A DNA stretch of 64,000 bases from Polynucleobacter sp. JS-JIR-II-50 (GTDB lineage Bacteria; Pseudomonadota; Gammaproteobacteria; Burkholderiales; Burkholderiaceae). Positions within the stretch are counted from its first letter, which is position 1; every line of letters starts with the position of its first letter. The DNA is taken from positions 434,001 through 498,000 of the forward strand of contig NZ_CP061307.1 in NCBI RefSeq assembly GCF_018687895.1, read 5' to 3'. Below, piece after piece: positions 24,574-30,199 of the stretch. The notes below the pieces were generated by a model. It was not told the DNA's origin, did not search any database, and saw only the letters and a list, made by a program, of their open reading frames with translations. The position numbers and the translations under genes are program-made.

Positions 24574-25536
24574 ATGAAGTTTTTCACCAAAGCCGTATTA
24601 ATTACATTTTTAAGCTTCACATTTGGACCGGCGTTTGCTGCTGACCCTTGGCCTAATCACCCCATTAAATTTGTTGTTGGGTTTGGTCCTGGCGGCGCTA
24701 ACGATACTGTTGCCAGGGTGGTTGCTGAAGCTGCCTCAAAGCAATTGGGTCAACCCATTATTGTTGAAAATAAACCAGGCGCTGGTTCTGTATTGGGTGC
24801 AGATTTTGTAGCAAAGAGTGCGCCAGATGGGTACACCTTCTTTGTTAGTGCTGGTGGAATTATTACTAACCCAATGATTAAGTCATCCATGCCATATAAG
24901 GAAGGCGATTTAGTGCCCGTTGGGATGCTCGCTATAAGCCCATCCATTATTGTTGTTTCAGCCGATTCAAAAATTAATAATATGAAGGATCTGCTTGTTC
25001 TTGCCAAAGATCCCAAGGGGCTTAACTTCTCGACCGCTGGTACTGGGAGTACTCCACACTTCGTAGCGGAGATGTTGAAAGTAAAAGCAGGCGGTAAATA
25101 TGAAATTATTCCCTATAAGAGTGGTTCCGAAGGAATGGTGGCTGTTATCTCTAATCAAGTTGACGCAACCTCAGAGGCAAGCGTTGTAGTAATTCCGCAA
25201 ATCCAAGGCGGCAAATTAAAAGCAGTTGCTTCCACCTGGAATAAAAGAATTGCCGCTCTGCCTGATGTTCCAACAACTAAAGAGCAGGGGTATCCTGAAG
25301 TATTCATTGGTCACTGGGCGGGTGTCTTTGCGCCTAAGGGAACGCCTGATGCTATCTTGGAGAAAATGAATCAAGCAATTAATGCAGGCCTTAAGACTGC
25401 CGCCGTTCAAAGCCGTCTAACGCCTCAAGGTATAGAGCCGTCACCTGGAACAAGAGCTTCATTTGCTAAATTCTTGGCTGATGAAAAGGCAAGGTTAGAG
25501 CCAATAGTGAAGCGCGCCAATATGAAAGAGGATTGA
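24574..25536 (+). CDS. Bug/TctC-type tripartite tricarboxylate transporter binding protein
   Basis: A 320-residue periplasmic Bug protein. The signal peptide ends FGPAFA, before ADPWPNHPIKFVVGFGPGGANDTVARVVAEA, the family N-terminal signature (P-I-x-x-V-V-x-x-x-P-G-G-x-x-D). ENKPGAGSVLGADFVAKSAPDGYTFF and IPYKSGSEGMVAV follow. It should bind a carboxylate or related anion for a TctAB permease, not encoded here. It is 19 bases after the ModA-like gene. It is one of four Bug genes in the window. Confidence 0.9.
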   Translation: MKFFTKAVLITFLSFTFGPAFAADPWPNHPIKFVVGFGPGGANDTVARVVAEAASKQLGQPIIVENKPGAGSVLGADFVAKSAPDGYTFFVSAGGIITNPMIKSSMPYKEGDLVPVGMLAISPSIIVVSADSKINNMKDLLVLAKDPKGLNFSTAGTGSTPHFVAEMLKVKAGGKYEIIPYKSGSEGMVAVISNQVDATSEASVVVIPQIQGGKLKAVASTWNKRIAALPDVPTTKEQGYPEVFIGHWAGVFAPKGTPDAILEKMNQAINAGLKTAAVQSRLTPQGIEPSPGTRASFAKFLADEKARLEPIVKRANMKED

Positions 25537-25584
25537 GTTGACTTCATCAATGGGTCAATCGAAGTCATTCAAATAACGTAGACT

Positions 25585-27306
25585 CTATTTTAATTTTAGG
25601 TAAATATCTTCAATCAATTTAGAAAAATGCACAGAAAAGAATTTAGGGTCTCCTAAGGGGCTGTTGGAAATCCGCTTTCTCATTGTCGTGCGCAAATGTG
25701 ATAGCTTGTCCAGATCATTGGATAGTCTTTTTGCTTGCTCTACAAACCCATCAATACTGTTTGTAACACATTCACCAAGATTAATTTCATGAAGGATGCT
25801 TGCTGATTGGTTGGATGCTGGGGTTATGCCGGTTCTGGTTATAACGGGAAGACCCATCCAAAGGGCCTCACAACTTGTAGTTGCTCCAGAAAATGGGTAT
25901 GTATCTAATGCTATATCTGCCTCATTATAAAAGTGGAACAGTGACTCATGATCGCAGTCCGCATAAAGCTCAACTCTTGAATTGGTAACCCCATAAGACA
26001 AAAACAATTCTCTAATATGATTTCTGAGTTGGTGATCACGTAAGGTTTTCCATCTTAATTGAATTCTAGAATGCGGTATTGCCATTAAAGTTTTTGACCA
26101 CATCTCTATACATTCATTATTAATTTTTGATGTACTGCTAAAGCTGCAAAATGTGATGCTACCGTTTGCAATAGCGGGCAGTGGATTAAGTTGCGGTACA
26201 TAAGGTGGGGGCGTATAGCAAAAACGTGAACAGGGTAATTTGTAGATGGCCTCTGAAAAAAAATCATCCGACACATTATGCAAATGCCATTCATCAAAGA
26301 TAACCCCATCCATTTGTAGTGCATGGGTTGATGCAAAGTAGCCTAAATAACTTAGCTGTATAGGTGCAATTCGTTGGTTAAAGATCGATATTCTGCTATT
26401 AGCTGTATGACCAGATAGATCAATTAAGACATCTATCTTATCGGACTGAATCTGATTAATTAAATCGCCATCCGTTAAACTTTCTACAAAAGAAAATCCT
26501 GAGACGATAGAAATAAGTTCATTTGTTAATTGATCTGTTTTATGGCCTGTATAGTAAATTGAAATTGAGTAATTTTTACTTAATTCCCGTAAGAGCCCAA
26601 GAGAAAACCATCCAACCGGATGTTGATTCATGTCTCCCGAAACAAAACCAATCTTTGGAAGACTATTTTTTGATTGAGATAATTTTTGAGGTCTGATTTT
26701 TTTAGAAATTTTCCTTATTCCTACTTTGGCAATCTGAATATATTTTCCAGGTTCAGCTTCGTAATTGGATAGCATTAATAAGTTCGAGATTGTGCTCTGA
26801 TCATAATTATTTATCACAATGCGATCGCCCAATATTTCCAGCGCTTCAGGTGTTTCCATTCGCTCACAAAGGCTGATTGCTAAGTTATTGGCATCACCAA
26901 TACTTAATTTCTCTCTGGCAAGATCAAGAAATAATGCTATGGCCTTGCTTGGTAAGCCTAGACCAATATAGGCTCCAGATAGAGGGGTTCTGGCACGATC
27001 TTCGCAGGGCCCTGGAATTAAGCCTTGCAGAATTTGAATAGATTCTAAAAAACGACCCTGAGCAAGATAAATGTTGCCTTTTTGTAGTTGAACTTCATCT
27101 TTGAAGCTTGATTCGATGTGCTCTATCTGCTTTACCACTACTAATGCCTCATCAAATTTTTGCAAACCCATTAGCGCCGATGAAAGCTCAAGATAAAGAA
27201 TGTAATTAGTCGGGTCGGCAGAAATAAGCTCCTGATATTGAGTGGCAGCTAAATAAAAGTTTTTTGCCCTTAATATATTGCGGGCGGACTGAATGTCAAT
27301 TTTCAT
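25585..27306 (-). CDS. SPINDLY/OGT-like TPR glycosyltransferase (GT41)
   Basis: A 573-residue protein. Residues 1 to about 180 form degenerate TPR helices (AATQYQELISADPTNYILYLELSSALMGL and others). From about 217 it is the bacterial GT41 catalytic region: PKIGFVSGDMNQHPVGWFS with the conserved His229, DVLIDLSGHTANSRISIFNQRIAPIQLSYLGYFAST, FCSFSSTSKIN with the lysine expected to bind nucleotide phosphate, and ADIALDTYPFSGATTSCEALWMGLPVIT. GT41 enzymes put GlcNAc or fucose on Ser/Thr of cytoplasmic protein acceptors. It lies 2 bases downstream of the radical-SAM gene on the same strand. Its base composition is clearly more AT-rich than that of flanking housekeeping genes. Confidence 0.88.
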   Translation of the reverse strand: MKIDIQSARNILRAKNFYLAATQYQELISADPTNYILYLELSSALMGLQKFDEALVVVKQIEHIESSFKDEVQLQKGNIYLAQGRFLESIQILQGLIPGPCEDRARTPLSGAYIGLGLPSKAIALFLDLAREKLSIGDANNLAISLCERMETPEALEILGDRIVINNYDQSTISNLLMLSNYEAEPGKYIQIAKVGIRKISKKIRPQKLSQSKNSLPKIGFVSGDMNQHPVGWFSLGLLRELSKNYSISIYYTGHKTDQLTNELISIVSGFSFVESLTDGDLINQIQSDKIDVLIDLSGHTANSRISIFNQRIAPIQLSYLGYFASTHALQMDGVIFDEWHLHNVSDDFFSEAIYKLPCSRFCYTPPPYVPQLNPLPAIANGSITFCSFSSTSKINNECIEMWSKTLMAIPHSRIQLRWKTLRDHQLRNHIRELFLSYGVTNSRVELYADCDHESLFHFYNEADIALDTYPFSGATTSCEALWMGLPVITRTGITPASNQSASILHEINLGECVTNSIDGFVEQAKRLSNDLDKLSHLRTTMRKRISNSPLGDPKFFSVHFSKLIEDIYLKLK

Positions 27307-27308
27307 AC

Positions 27309-28649
27309 CTAAACATCCTGAATGGTGAGGTGCAGATTATTTTCCATACAAGTAGAGCAAAAAGAATGCTTGTATTTCAAGCTCTCAATTTCAGAAGCGC
27401 TATTCTCTAAAAAATAGGTTTTCTTGCCAATTTCATCTGATAGATTTTTAGTGGTACCACAACACAGCGAAATCGACCCATCATAATTAATTGCAGTCAT
27501 ATTAAAGCGTAATTCGCAATCCATCGATCCCGATCTTCTCGATTTAATATTTTCAGCTATTGTTTTCGGGTGAAAGAAAAGCTGTTCTTCAATGTCTGAC
27601 TCAATTCCATTGATGCTCTTAAGTAAGGCATGAGCCTTTTCAATTGGCGCCATGATTGCATATGAAGGTCTATAGCCAAAACCGTAATGATTGGCAAGAG
27701 CTTTTATTTGATCCATCTCGTTAATAGTATTTTTATAAAGGTGATGCCCAATCCATATTTCAGTTGTAGATTGGTGGCTATCCCTTGCTTGTGCCAACTT
27801 CTCAAAATTCTGAATGACTGTTTGAATATCTCCACGGTCATGAGTTACCCCATATATCTCTTGCTGTAGGCTAGAAATAGATACCTTAAATCTATCGGGA
27901 TTAGCCTCTATCACTGCATCAATTCGATCTGAGATATTTAAATTACTCGAAATGAACGAAGTTAAGTTAGCCTTACGAATTTCTTTGATGAAATCTGGTA
28001 AATGTTGGTTAAGCAGGGGTTCACTCCAATTAAAAAGCCAAATATCTGGCTTATGAGCTGGATTTTCTTCGCATATTTTTTTGAGTATTTTGGAGAATAA
28101 TTCTGGCCCCATGATCCCCTTCGGCATTTCTTTTTGGTTGCCAATAGGGCAGGTTGGGCAACGTAAATTACATCCACCGACAACATCAACTGCATAAACA
28201 TATGAAGAGGATTCGATCGGATGATATCGCTCTAATGACTTCTTTTCCGTAGGGATGTAAATTATTTTTTCTAAATGGGCTGGGATCTCAATTTGTCTCT
28301 TGAGCTCACTTAAAGTTGGGAATGTTAGCTGATTAAGCTCAGCATATCTCAGCCATTTCTGAGCATGCTTTTTATATGTATTTGAAAGATGTATTTGTAT
28401 TACAAGCTCAACAGCTTTTTTTTGATCTATTTCGTTCGCTAAATCTTGCCGAAAAGAGTCTTTAACAAGTTGATCGCCTTGGAGATCAGCCCTTCGCAAT
28501 AAAAGTGTTCCTAGGTTAAATAAGGCGCCTGCTTGATTGGGGTTTATCTGTAGCGCTGCTCTATAGAGACTTTCGGCCTTTTCTGTTAAATTAAGTCGAT
28601 AGCACTCAGAGGCTTCTGAAAGTAGTTGGTTTAATGTTTGGGCGCTCAT
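27309..28649 (-). CDS. TPR-radical SAM/SPASM protein of unknown substrate
   Basis: A 446-residue protein. Residues 1-100 hold TPR-like helices (ASECYRLNLTEKAESLYRAALQINPNQAGALFNLGTLL). The radical SAM core starts at about 150, with the [4Fe-4S] cysteines C160, C164 and C167 in GGCNLRCPTCPIGN. NWSEPLL at 207-213 stands where SAM is bound (GGEP-like). The C-terminal SPASM-like region has C378, C396/C397, C431 and C434, enough for an auxiliary cluster. SPASM proteins usually modify peptides or sugars. The gene is the first of a two-gene operon with the GT41 gene, and starts only 23 bases from the divergent barrel-protein gene. Function is not known; modification of the neighbouring protein or of a glycan are both possible. 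Confidence 0.82.
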   Translation of the reverse strand: MSAQTLNQLLSEASECYRLNLTEKAESLYRAALQINPNQAGALFNLGTLLLRRADLQGDQLVKDSFRQDLANEIDQKKAVELVIQIHLSNTYKKHAQKWLRYAELNQLTFPTLSELKRQIEIPAHLEKIIYIPTEKKSLERYHPIESSSYVYAVDVVGGCNLRCPTCPIGNQKEMPKGIMGPELFSKILKKICEENPAHKPDIWLFNWSEPLLNQHLPDFIKEIRKANLTSFISSNLNISDRIDAVIEANPDRFKVSISSLQQEIYGVTHDRGDIQTVIQNFEKLAQARDSHQSTTEIWIGHHLYKNTINEMDQIKALANHYGFGYRPSYAIMAPIEKAHALLKSINGIESDIEEQLFFHPKTIAENIKSRRSGSMDCELRFNMTAINYDGSISLCCGTTKNLSDEIGKKTYFLENSASEIESLKYKHSFCSTCMENNLHLTIQDV

Positions 28650-28672
28650 TCTATTAATTTACTGCTAACCCT

Positions 28673-30127
28673 ATGAAATCGTCTAAATCTTCCTCGCTCA
28701 GCCTCTTTCTTGTTGCAATGTCTGCCTCAAGTGGAGCCATGGCTGCTTTATCCTGCGGCGTCGGTACTTATAGCTCCACTGGTCTAGATAGCGCCCCCGG
28801 TGGCTGTATTGATGCATCTCCTGGGTCCTATGTAAATTTTACTGGATCAACTGCCGCCACCTTGGCTGCGCCCGGTTTCTATCAGCCGAATCCTGGACAG
28901 TCTTCCGCTCTAGTGGCGAGTCCTGGTTATTACGTTCCAATACAGGGGGCTACAGCCGCCCTTCCGGCGCCCATCGGCTCCTATGTGGCTAATTCTGGAT
29001 CTTCTTCAGCCACTCCAGCTCCTGCCGGATACTTTGTTGCCAATACAGGTGCAACATCTGCTACGCCAGCGCTACCGGGAACTTATGTAGCATCCACTGG
29101 TCAAGCATCAGCAACGCAGGTTTCACCAGGTTTCTACACATATGCTCCTGGCGCCTCGAGTCAGGTACCTGCAGGCCTGATGGCGGGCCCGCTGAACTCA
29201 ACCATTCGGGCTAACGAAGCGAGTATTCGAGATGCGACTTCGATGATTGATGCTGAAGGTGATGCAACTATCAAGTCCTCTTTCTACTACCAGGGTGGTT
29301 CGGTAGATCAACTCGGGCAATCCTCAGGGGCTAGACAAAATATTTCTTTTTGGGGATTAAATCTCTCGGGTAATATTTTTGGTAGCAAGGATGAGCCTGC
29401 TGGAGTTTTGGCGAATGTGACGTCAGCTAATTATTCAGCTGGTTCAGATGGAAGTGGTAACGGCCTTGGTTTGAGTATTGGGCTGTTTAAAAAGCTACAG
29501 ATCGAAACAGCCAAATTTGTTGGCACATTGCTCTTTGGTAACTATAACTACAACAGCACTCGACAGAATCTTAGTCAGGGTACCGTTTCTGGCACATCTT
29601 CAAACATCCAATCTGCTACCGGAAATACTAACGTCAATACCTATGGAGTTAATGTCATGGGATCACTTCCGTTAGCGGCCGCCTTACCAAATCTTGATGG
29701 TTTTTTAAATGTTGCAGTGACTAACTATGCCTACAAAGGTATGAATGAGTCTGTAAGTGGTTCAGGCAGTAATCCAAGTGCTGGACTCAATACATCATCG
29801 ATGAATTATGTTTCCATACCTACTACACTTGGTTTGAGATACTCGCTCATGGATTCATCTAATAAGGTCAGTCTTGGGGCAATATCCGTAGGCTATAAGT
29901 ATGACTTTGGAAAATCTACAACTATGAATATGTCAACTCAATCAAGTCCGAGCTACCAGTTCGGATTGCCGATAGCCTTGACCAACGCACGTGCTACCGT
30001 GATTGAAATTTCCTCCGCTAATTATGAGTTGCAAAAAGATTTAAGCTTATCGGCAGCAATTTCTACAGAGTTTTCTAGCGCTTATTCGTTTTATCAGGGC
30101 AGCTTAAGACTTCGCAAATCGTTCTAA
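28673..30127 (+). CDS. Exported beta-barrel protein with seven 17-residue Ser/Thr-rich repeats
   Basis: A 484-residue protein not recognised as a named family. A Sec signal peptide of about 24 residues ends SSGAMA. Residues 28-49 contain Cys28 and Cys44 in a related, non-standard unit. Residues 50-168 are seven exact-length 17-residue repeats, for example AGYFVANTGATSATPAL. Gly2 and Gly9 are invariant, position 4 is Tyr/Phe and positions 11-12 are Ser/Thr/Ala. They resemble cysteine-free GCC2/GCC3-type repeats. From about 200 to the end, alternating Gly/Asn/Ser-rich strands finish in SLRLRKSF, whose terminal Phe is typical of an outer-membrane barrel. So it is probably an outer-membrane protein displaying a repeat stalk. 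No strong RBS is seen before the ATG. Confidence 0.8.
   Translation: MKSSKSSSLSLFLVAMSASSGAMAALSCGVGTYSSTGLDSAPGGCIDASPGSYVNFTGSTAATLAAPGFYQPNPGQSSALVASPGYYVPIQGATAALPAPIGSYVANSGSSSATPAPAGYFVANTGATSATPALPGTYVASTGQASATQVSPGFYTYAPGASSQVPAGLMAGPLNSTIRANEASIRDATSMIDAEGDATIKSSFYYQGGSVDQLGQSSGARQNISFWGLNLSGNIFGSKDEPAGVLANVTSANYSAGSDGSGNGLGLSIGLFKKLQIETAKFVGTLLFGNYNYNSTRQNLSQGTVSGTSSNIQSATGNTNVNTYGVNVMGSLPLAAALPNLDGFLNVAVTNYAYKGMNESVSGSGSNPSAGLNTSSMNYVSIPTTLGLRYSLMDSSNKVSLGAISVGYKYDFGKSTTMNMSTQSSPSYQFGLPIALTNARATVIEISSANYELQKDLSLSAAISTEFSSAYSFYQGSLRLRKSF
28820..29176 (+). repeat. Seven tandem 51-base coding repeats
   Basis: 357 bases encoding seven 17-residue units, in register and without insertions, beginning at residues 50, 67, 84, 101, 118, 135 and 152 of the barrel protein. 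The protein pattern is P-G-x-Y-x4-G-x-[ST]-[SA]-A-x-x-A-x. DNA copies have diverged at many codon positions, so the array is old rather than newly amplified. Confidence 0.9.
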
Positions 30128-30199
30128 TGGGAAGGTATCTTAGCGAGCTTTGATCGGCTGAATTAATGTGTCTAGGATCAAAGACTGGTTTTGTAATAA

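What the first reader, a model, noticed from the sequence alone, without database searches (positions are those of the whole stretch)
25585..30127. Three-gene island: OGT/SPINDLY transferase, TPR radical-SAM/SPASM protein and a repeat-bearing outer-membrane barrel
Seen: a GT41 gene 2 bases downstream of a TPR radical-SAM gene, and, 23 bases away and divergent, an exported barrel protein whose passenger region is seven 17-residue units with Ser/Thr at fixed places and an invariant G-x-[YF]. Known: GT41 enzymes glycosylate Ser/Thr of proteins and SPASM radical SAM enzymes mostly modify peptides. Inference: the two TPR enzymes may modify the repeat region before secretion, forming a surface-protein maturation system I do not recognise. 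Rival: the enzymes modify a pilin, flagellin or glycan encoded elsewhere and the barrel is a bystander.
Basis: partly seen in the sequence, partly recalled or inferred. Interest (0 to 1): 0.8.

Follow-up and report, generated by a model that had tools for sequence, protein, structure and literature searches.

The report
Mobile repeat-protein modification cassette
Three neighbouring genes that move together between bacteria appear to make a surface protein built of repeated 17-residue units and two enzymes, a sugar-adding one and a radical one, that probably decorate those units before the protein leaves the cell.

Summary
The three genes are as described and form a conserved, mobile unit. TPR radical-SAM relatives form one clade; the repeat protein is beside 24 of its 28 members (window included), and the other 4 contigs are cut on the side where relatives carry it. 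GT41 is seen in 18 of those 24; in the other 6 the contig ends inside the repeat gene. Eight gene arrangements occur. None of 51 more distant radical-SAM loci shows the repeat protein. In samples of 369 and 398 genomes, repeat and clade enzyme occur in the same 2 and 4 genomes. Three sister genomes show an empty site for the 4.66 kb island. The 17-residue repeat is constant while the anchoring end varies (autotransporter barrel, PEP-CTERM, Ig-like), so the repeat is the likely substrate. Corrections: the radical enzyme has a one-cluster twitch domain, not SPASM; its outside relatives lie partly in sugar loci, so a sugar target is at least as likely as a peptide; the barrel is an autotransporter translocator by predicted fold. 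GT41 keeps its catalytic residues and a bulky donor gate, suggesting a small hexose. No modification has been shown; mass spectrometry would decide.

The parts
25538..30198 (.). Inserted 4.66 kb island holding only the three genes; absent at this place in sister genomes
   Evidence: G007 (L168) and G004 (L169): window 25537 joins 30199; G002 (L171): 25534 joins 30199; flanks 81-91% identical; GC of the two enzyme genes 0.377 and 0.379 against flanks 0.455 and 0.468
25585..27306 (-). GT41 (OGT/SPINDLY-like) glycosyltransferase with N-terminal TPR
   Evidence: PF13844 117 bits, TPR_19 30.9 bits; best solved relatives T. terrenum 5djs 1e-54 and SPINDLY 7y4i 1.9e-51
26620..26622 (-). H229, equivalent of SPINDLY H495
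   Evidence: my count on the alignment, with PMC9715652 passages; H in 19 of 19 cassette GT41s
26125..26127 (-). K394, equivalent of essential SPINDLY K665
   Evidence: my count on the alignment; K in 19 of 19 cassette GT41s
25891..25893 (-). F472, donor-size gate (SPINDLY Y744 / OGT C917 / HMW1C F517)
   Evidence: F in 18 of 19 cassette GT41s, Y in 1; role as written in PMC9715652 section 12
27309..28649 (-). TPR radical-SAM enzyme with twitch domain
   Evidence: PF04055 39.1 bits; model pLDDT 92.3
28284..28649 (-). N-terminal TPR-like helical repeat region (residues 1-122)
28149..28172 (-). CxxxCxxC radical-SAM cluster motif (C160, C164, C167)
   Evidence: 28 of 28 clade rows and 30 of 30 outside rows
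27348..27518 (-). Twitch auxiliary-cluster cysteines C378-x12-G-x4-C396 C397 ... C431-x2-C434
   Evidence: C378, C396, C397 in 28 of 28 clade rows, C431 and C434 in 27 of 28
28673..28744 (+). Likely Sec signal peptide (residues 1-24, ends AMA)
   Evidence: my reading of the sequence, no predictor run; pLDDT below 50 over residues 1-25
28751..28810 (+). First, Cys-capped unit (C28, C45), Ephrin_rec_like-type
   Evidence: unit printed; weak PF07699 match of the protein elsewhere in the array
28811..29167 (+). Seven Cys-free 17-residue units; family consensus xAxxGx[YF]Vxxx[GA][AQ][ST]xxT
29174..29251 (+). Linker helix (residues 168-193)
   Evidence: model
29270..30124 (+). Autotransporter translocator-type beta-barrel (residues 200-484)

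Best explanation
A mobile three-gene cassette that makes a covalently modified surface repeat protein. The repeat protein is made with a Sec signal. In the cytoplasm the GT41 enzyme, holding the repeat array with its TPR, puts a small sugar (hexose or deoxyhexose) on Ser/Thr of the 17-residue units, most likely the nearly constant Ser/Thr at unit position 14. The TPR-fused twitch radical-SAM enzyme docks on the same array and carries out a second, radical step, slightly more likely on the attached sugar (oxidation or rearrangement, as BtrN, BlsE and DesII do on free sugars or sugar-like substrates) than on the peptide. The modified protein is then exported and held on the surface by whatever anchor its C-terminus supplies: an autotransporter barrel here. 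Shown: gene linkage, reciprocal presence, movement as a block, conserved catalytic residues, anchor swapping around a constant repeat. Inferred: that the repeat is the substrate, the order of steps, the sugar, the site and the radical reaction.
For: Linkage: 24 of 28 rows of one rSAM clade have the repeat protein, the other 4 being cut contigs; 0 of 51 other rSAM loci show it. All three genes are seen in 18 loci (17 fetched, two of them with identical enzymes, plus the window); in the 6 further clade loci with the repeat protein the contig ends inside the repeat gene, and for one of them the next contig shows GT41 right after it. Eight arrangements (my count). Reciprocal presence in samples of 369 and 398 genomes. 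No fourth family recurs in the neighbourhoods. rSAM and GT41 distances agree, r 0.89 over 18 loci, 0 of 10,000 permutations as high; the 19 cassette GT41s fall in one clade, 98*, with 4 other Polynucleobacter GT41s. Empty site. Anchors differ. GT41 residues. Ser/Thr14 is more frequent in 21 linked repeat proteins than in 13 Cys-type ones without a matched rSAM, p 0.0016.
Confidence: 0.7

Rival explanations
1. Same dedicated system, but the radical-SAM enzyme modifies the peptide itself (for example an oxidation or cross-link at the conserved Tyr/Phe, Val or Ala of each unit), and GT41 acts independently on Ser/Thr.
For: Val8 and Ala2 are nearly invariant in Cys-free units, and Tyr/Phe7 is constant though by the search definition; SkfB and SuiB, both peptide enzymes, are tied for best fold match; twitch enzymes include the sactisynthase SkfB (PMC6231123, passages).
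Against: The catalytic core is shared with relatives that mostly lack the N-terminal extension and lie in part in sugar loci; the first nine Foldseek matches are BlsE, DesII, MoaA and BtrN. Gly, Tyr/Phe and turn residues are also typical of PF07699 repeats for structural reasons.
Confidence: 0.35
2. The enzyme pair acts on another protein (flagellin, pilin) or a glycan, and the repeat protein is a linked passenger or uses the product.
For: The sister rSAM L061 sits with five GT41s, flagellin and FliD and no repeat protein; GT41s of the cassette clade in four Polynucleobacter genomes lie by other large exported-looking proteins.
Against: Reciprocal presence and linkage kept through eight arrangements. 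A flagellin motif was found in ORFs of L061, L085 and L095 only, in none of the clade loci; pilins were not searched for. No fourth family recurs beside the cassette, and its outer neighbours are of mixed families in the 25 of 62 shown.
Confidence: 0.12
3. The TPR enzymes serve as chaperones or export factors for the repeat protein, with catalysis secondary.
For: TPR domains on both enzymes; HMW1C has been discussed as a possible chaperone (PMC3983070, passages).
Against: GT41 H and K are kept in 19 of 19; the radical-SAM cluster motif in 28 of 28 and the auxiliary-cluster cysteines in 27 or 28 of 28 clade rows.
Confidence: 0.06

Closest known systems
BAHT autotransporter heptosyltransferases (TibC/Aah) with TibA/AIDA-I
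   Different: enzyme family is GT41, not BAHT; a radical-SAM partner is part of the cassette; the repeat is of the Ephrin_rec_like kind; the anchor is often not a barrel
HMW1C with HMW1 adhesin (GT41, two-partner secretion)
   Same: GT41 enzyme encoded with a surface protein, glycosylation in the cytoplasm before Sec export (PMC3983070, passages); Phe at the donor gate
   Different: HMW1C is N-linking and has an AAD domain instead of TPR; NCBIfam N-glucosyltransferase model 41 bits against cut-off 1000; no radical-SAM partner is mentioned in the passages seen
SPINDLY / bacterial OGT-like GT41
   Same: TPR plus GT41 catalytic domain, catalytic H and K
   Different: SPINDLY acts on many intracellular proteins (recalled); here one linked exported substrate is likely; SPINDLY's base-stacking H728 aligns with Ser here (my reading)
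Twitch and sugar-acting radical-SAM enzymes BtrN, BlsE, DesII
   Same: fold; for BtrN a single auxiliary cluster held by four Cys (PMC6231123 and PMC9012708, passages)
   Different: 10-17% identity; no TPR and small sugar or sugar-nucleotide substrates (BlsE and DesII recalled, BtrN)
SPASM/twitch RiPP maturases (SkfB, SuiB, CteB)
   Same: radical-SAM core plus C-terminal cluster domain acting on a gene-encoded peptide
   Different: TPR at the N-terminus where those have a peptide-binding RRE; the substrate would be a long surface repeat protein
Flagellin glycosylation islands
   Same: L061, sister enzyme, in a flagellin locus with GT41s
   Different: here the neighbour is a repeat protein, in all 24 clade members whose contig is not cut on that side

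Membership tests
GT41 glycosyltransferases | PF13844 catalytic domain above curated cut-off | tested here: met
   117 bits, cut-off 25
GT41 glycosyltransferases | catalytic His and Lys (SPINDLY H495, K665) | tested here: met
   H229, K394; 19 of 19 cassette members
GT41 glycosyltransferases | transfer of a sugar to Ser/Thr | not testable with these tools
   needs enzymology
HMW1C-type N-glycosyltransferase | NCBIfam NF049992 equivalog cut-off | tested here: not met
   41 bits against 1000
Radical SAM superfamily | PF04055 and CxxxCxxC | tested here: met
   39.1 bits, cut-off 29.5; 28 of 28 clade rows
SPASM domain | seven-Cys motif CX9-15GX4C-gap-CX2CX5CX3C-gap-C (PMC6231123, passages) | tested here: not met
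   only C-x12-G-x4-C and CxxC, no Cys after C434; PF13186 12.1 bits, cut-off 21.5
Twitch domain | truncated SPASM: the first four Cys, one auxiliary cluster | tested here: met
   C-x-G-x4-C motif in 29 of 29 rows and final CxxC in 28 of 29, exception L037; one extra Cys, C397, in 28 of 28 clade rows; the cluster itself was not observed
Ephrin_rec_like (PF07699) | curated cut-off 23.1 bits | tested here: not met
   window protein 15.7 bits; of 11 other cassette repeat proteins scanned, L039, L043, L046, L047, L055 (at the cut-off), L059 and L060 reach it, L037, L051, L052 and L153 do not
Classical (type Va) autotransporter | PF03797 profile | tested here: not met
   no such hit in the window protein; the G674 homologue has it, 94.8 bits
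Classical (type Va) autotransporter | translocator barrel after a passenger and a linker helix | tested here: met
BAHT/TibC system | heptosyltransferase of the BAHT family | tested here: not met
   the glycosyltransferase matches GT41
RiPP biosynthetic cluster | short precursor with leader and core, RRE | not tested
   no small-ORF or RRE search was made; one search used ORFs of 120 aa or more only

The most novel reading that the evidence does not exclude
The cassette installs a two-step, array-wide modification on a surface repeat protein: GT41 glycosylates one Ser/Thr per 17-residue unit, and a TPR-docked twitch radical-SAM enzyme then remodels the protein-bound sugar or the unit itself, many times per chain, giving a chemically altered surface fibre from a mostly Cys-free form of an ephrin-receptor-like repeat. 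A radical-SAM enzyme acting on a long, surface-displayed repeat protein in fixed partnership with an OGT-like enzyme would be a kind of protein maturation that my literature searches did not find.
Probability: 0.5. Interest if true: 0.9.

Novelty: new variant of a known kind. Interest (0 to 1): 0.78.

Why it matters
Glycosyltransferases dedicated to one surface protein are known (TibC-TibA, HMW1C-HMW1). A partnership of an OGT/SPINDLY-like enzyme with a radical-SAM enzyme around one repeat did not turn up in the papers I could search (open-access PMC only, of 82 papers with two or more of the terms, the 25 listed hold no 'radical SAM'). It gives bacterial OGT-like GT41 enzymes, whose targets are to my knowledge mostly unknown, a concrete candidate substrate and site. 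It offers a small system (two enzymes, one short unit) for asking how TPR enzymes process repeat arrays, and a possible route to new radical chemistry on glycoproteins.

Tried and rejected
Bystander barrel: kept for the barrel, which is exchanged between lineages, rejected for the repeat. SPASM label: rejected on the cysteine pattern. 'The modification replaces the disulfides of Cys-type repeats': considered, not adopted, because five linked proteins keep Cys units. Plasmid-borne spread: no plasmid record held a clade enzyme; 2 records matched 65% of the query at 29-31% identity. Viral spread: 6 weak partial matches in viral contigs, 25-28% identity. First neighbour scan of outside radical-SAM loci (96 proteins from 24 loci) mixed in loci whose enzymes lack the C-x-G-x4-CC pattern; repeated with 76 of the 96, from 19 loci, sugar-enzyme counts fell (Epimerase 9 to 5, dTDP-sugar isomerase 4 to none listed), so I use the weaker result. 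The contrast of 72 outer neighbours of 18 cassette loci (1 Epimerase) includes some shadow ORFs, only the first 25 families of each scan are listed, and the difference was not tested. Fold search of the radical-SAM model did not separate sugar from peptide enzymes. Of 224 relatives found only the best 80 were returned, so 144 were not seen, and many of the 51 loci without the repeat protein lie on short contigs: 0 of 51 is a soft zero. The GT41 donor cannot be named: the gate residue suggests only a small sugar. P0130 and P0134 were not resolved. Dropped rows: L036 from the logo, and L035, L036 and L042 from the Ser/Thr count; 16 Cys-free and 5 Cys-type linked proteins were used there out of 24.
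Full report
WHAT IS THERE. Pfam supports GT41 (117 bits, cut-off 25) and radical SAM (39.1, cut-off 29.5); SPASM is below its cut-off. The repeat protein has a signal-like N-terminus, a first unit with two Cys, seven Cys-free units of exactly 17 residues, a helix and a barrel. Shuffling the protein 20,000 times never gave an exact-17 chain above 3, against 7 observed. The genome is 2.07 Mb; the named relatives of the proteins are Polynucleobacter, so the window is probably from that genus.

THE TRIO IS A CONSERVED UNIT. An alignment of the window enzyme and 36 relatives (A1) was used to scan 84,980 species genomes: 224 relatives, best 80 kept, 79 loci. A motif test (at least four G-x-[YF] spaced 15-20) and profile searches gave: of 28 loci with a radical-SAM score above 415 bits, 23 have the repeat protein and 19 a GT41; of the other 51, none shows the repeat protein. 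In the tree, 27 of these 28 loci plus the window form one clade (97*, 28 rows): 24 with the repeat protein, 4 without (L040, L044, L050, L054); the 28th locus, L061, is the sister. Each of the 4 contigs ends on the side where its nearest relatives carry the repeat gene. All three genes are seen in 17 fetched loci and in the window; the 6 clade loci with the repeat protein but no GT41 (L045, L048, L051, L056, L057, L066) are contigs that end inside the repeat gene. For L066 (P. cosmopolitanus, seen as G674) another contig continues the repeat gene and then has GT41. L041 and L042 carry identical radical-SAM proteins, and L035 is a Bacteroidota-labelled MAG whose enzyme is 71% identical to the window's, so the loci are not all independent.

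RECIPROCAL TEST. Profiles of the enzyme (A1) and of the Cys-free repeat (A3) were run on the same sampled genomes. Class sample, 369 genomes: repeat in 2 (G000, G360) at E up to 1e-10, clade-level enzyme in the same 2; a third genome, G319, has only distant enzymes, 321 bits or less. Family sample, 398 genomes: repeat in 4 (G000, G599, G674, G709), clade-level enzyme (above 500 bits) in the same 4; G016 has a distant enzyme (170 bits) and no repeat. In a sample of 121 genomes of the genus the window repeat protein as a query was found only in its own genome and the enzyme elsewhere only as two distant forms (25-28% identity), while GT41 genes of other kinds are common: 86 of 121 genomes, the own one included.

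IT MOVES AS A BLOCK. In sister genomes G007 and G004 window base 25537 continues directly at 30199, in G002 base 25534 does, with flanks 81-91% identical; the island 25538-30198 holds only the three genes. G024 and G013 also lack it at this place, with further differences on the left side. In G709 (contig of 2,090,447 bases, the length listed for P. arcticus) the same three genes, 72% identical in DNA, lie at another site, beside DNA homologous to window 3.3-9.4 kb. GC of the enzyme genes is 0.377-0.379, of the repeat gene 0.467, of the flanks 0.455-0.468. I count eight arrangements of order and strand, spans 4.3-8.0 kb (my count corrects stop-to-stop starts in L043 and L049). Clustering of ORFs of at least 120 aa in the 28 loci gives no other family present in most loci (a cluster of 10 loci looks to me like shadow frames of the cassette genes).

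COEVOLUTION. All 19 cassette GT41s lie in one clade (98*) together with four other Polynucleobacter GT41s, which sit beside large exported-looking proteins, and in two of the four also near HlyD/TolC-like type I secretion genes (my reading); no clade-level rSAM was found in those four genomes. Distances of radical-SAM and GT41 correlate across 18 loci, r 0.89, 0 of 10,000 permutations as high.

THE REPEAT IS CONSTANT, THE ANCHOR IS NOT. The C-terminal parts of the repeat proteins differ: barrels in the window group and, by eye, in L037 and L038; a PF03797 autotransporter domain in G674 (94.8 bits); PEP-CTERM in L052 (22.7 bits, cut-off 20.7) and, by eye or below cut-off, in L041-L043, L049, L053, L055 and L058; Ig-like domains with M10-C in L051; Calx-beta and a GlyGly-like tail in L060; a dockerin-like end in L039 (dockerin and GlyGly are my reading, without a Pfam hit). 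Unit consensus over 18 Cys-free proteins, each weighted 1: Ala2 0.98, Gly5 1.0 and Tyr/Phe7 1.0 (both by the search definition), Val8 0.91, Gly/Ala12 0.97, Ser/Thr14 0.87, Thr17 0.66; 268 of 306 unit lengths are 17 (one zero-length artefact left out). Ser/Thr14 is more frequent in 21 linked proteins than in 13 Cys-type proteins without a matched enzyme (p 0.0016), but four unmatched Cys-free proteins have it just as often. The family is a divergent, mostly Cys-free Ephrin_rec_like repeat.

BARREL. The model of the window protein (pLDDT 85.7) has short paired strands in the repeat units, a helix 168-193 and a barrel 200-484; best matches are autotransporter translocators NalP 30.3, EstA 30.1, AIDA-I 27.3. 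So the repeat is probably the passenger of an autotransporter, the layout of the glycosylated AIDA-I/TibA adhesins (PMC4358343, abstract and digest).

PRECEDENT AND NOVELTY. HMW1C glycosylates HMW1 in the cytoplasm before Sec export (PMC3983070, passages), so cytoplasmic modification of an exported protein by a GT41 enzyme is established. A radical-SAM partner of a GT41 enzyme was not found; there I saw listings and abstract starts only. Five papers were opened, each in part: PMC9715652 (passages, section 12), PMC6231123, PMC9012708 and PMC3983070 (passages), PMC4358343 (abstract and digest). The library lacks most subscription papers, so absence here is weak evidence of novelty.

Noticed in passing
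L061:1-21389: Sister of the cassette enzyme in a flagellin locus: TPR radical-SAM enzyme, five GT41 genes, flagellin, FliD and a DegT aminotransferase, no repeat protein; suggests a flagellin version of the same pairing.
   Followed up: partly
L085:2163-13021: Outside radical-SAM enzyme without the N-terminal extension (242 bits) with two flagellin genes within 10 kb in a Methylococcaceae MAG.
   Followed up: no
L120:8220-9824, L121:485-2080, L122:15068-15862, L123:1915-3477: Four Polynucleobacter-group GT41s of the cassette clade beside long exported-looking proteins, in two cases near type I secretion genes, without a radical-SAM partner: possibly another substrate class of the same GT41 subfamily.
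   Followed up: partly
L090, L092, L094, L096, L098, L103, L107-L112: Arrays of two to four radical-SAM genes close together in Desulfobacterota and others, without the auxiliary-cluster pattern in most copies.
   Followed up: no
   Followed up: partly
L035: A MAG named Cryomorphaceae (Bacteroidota) holds a cassette whose enzyme is 71% identical to the window's; probably a binning error.
   Followed up: no
L125:1-1314 and L125:6011-7891: Two further GT41-type genes elsewhere in the window's own genome.
   Followed up: no
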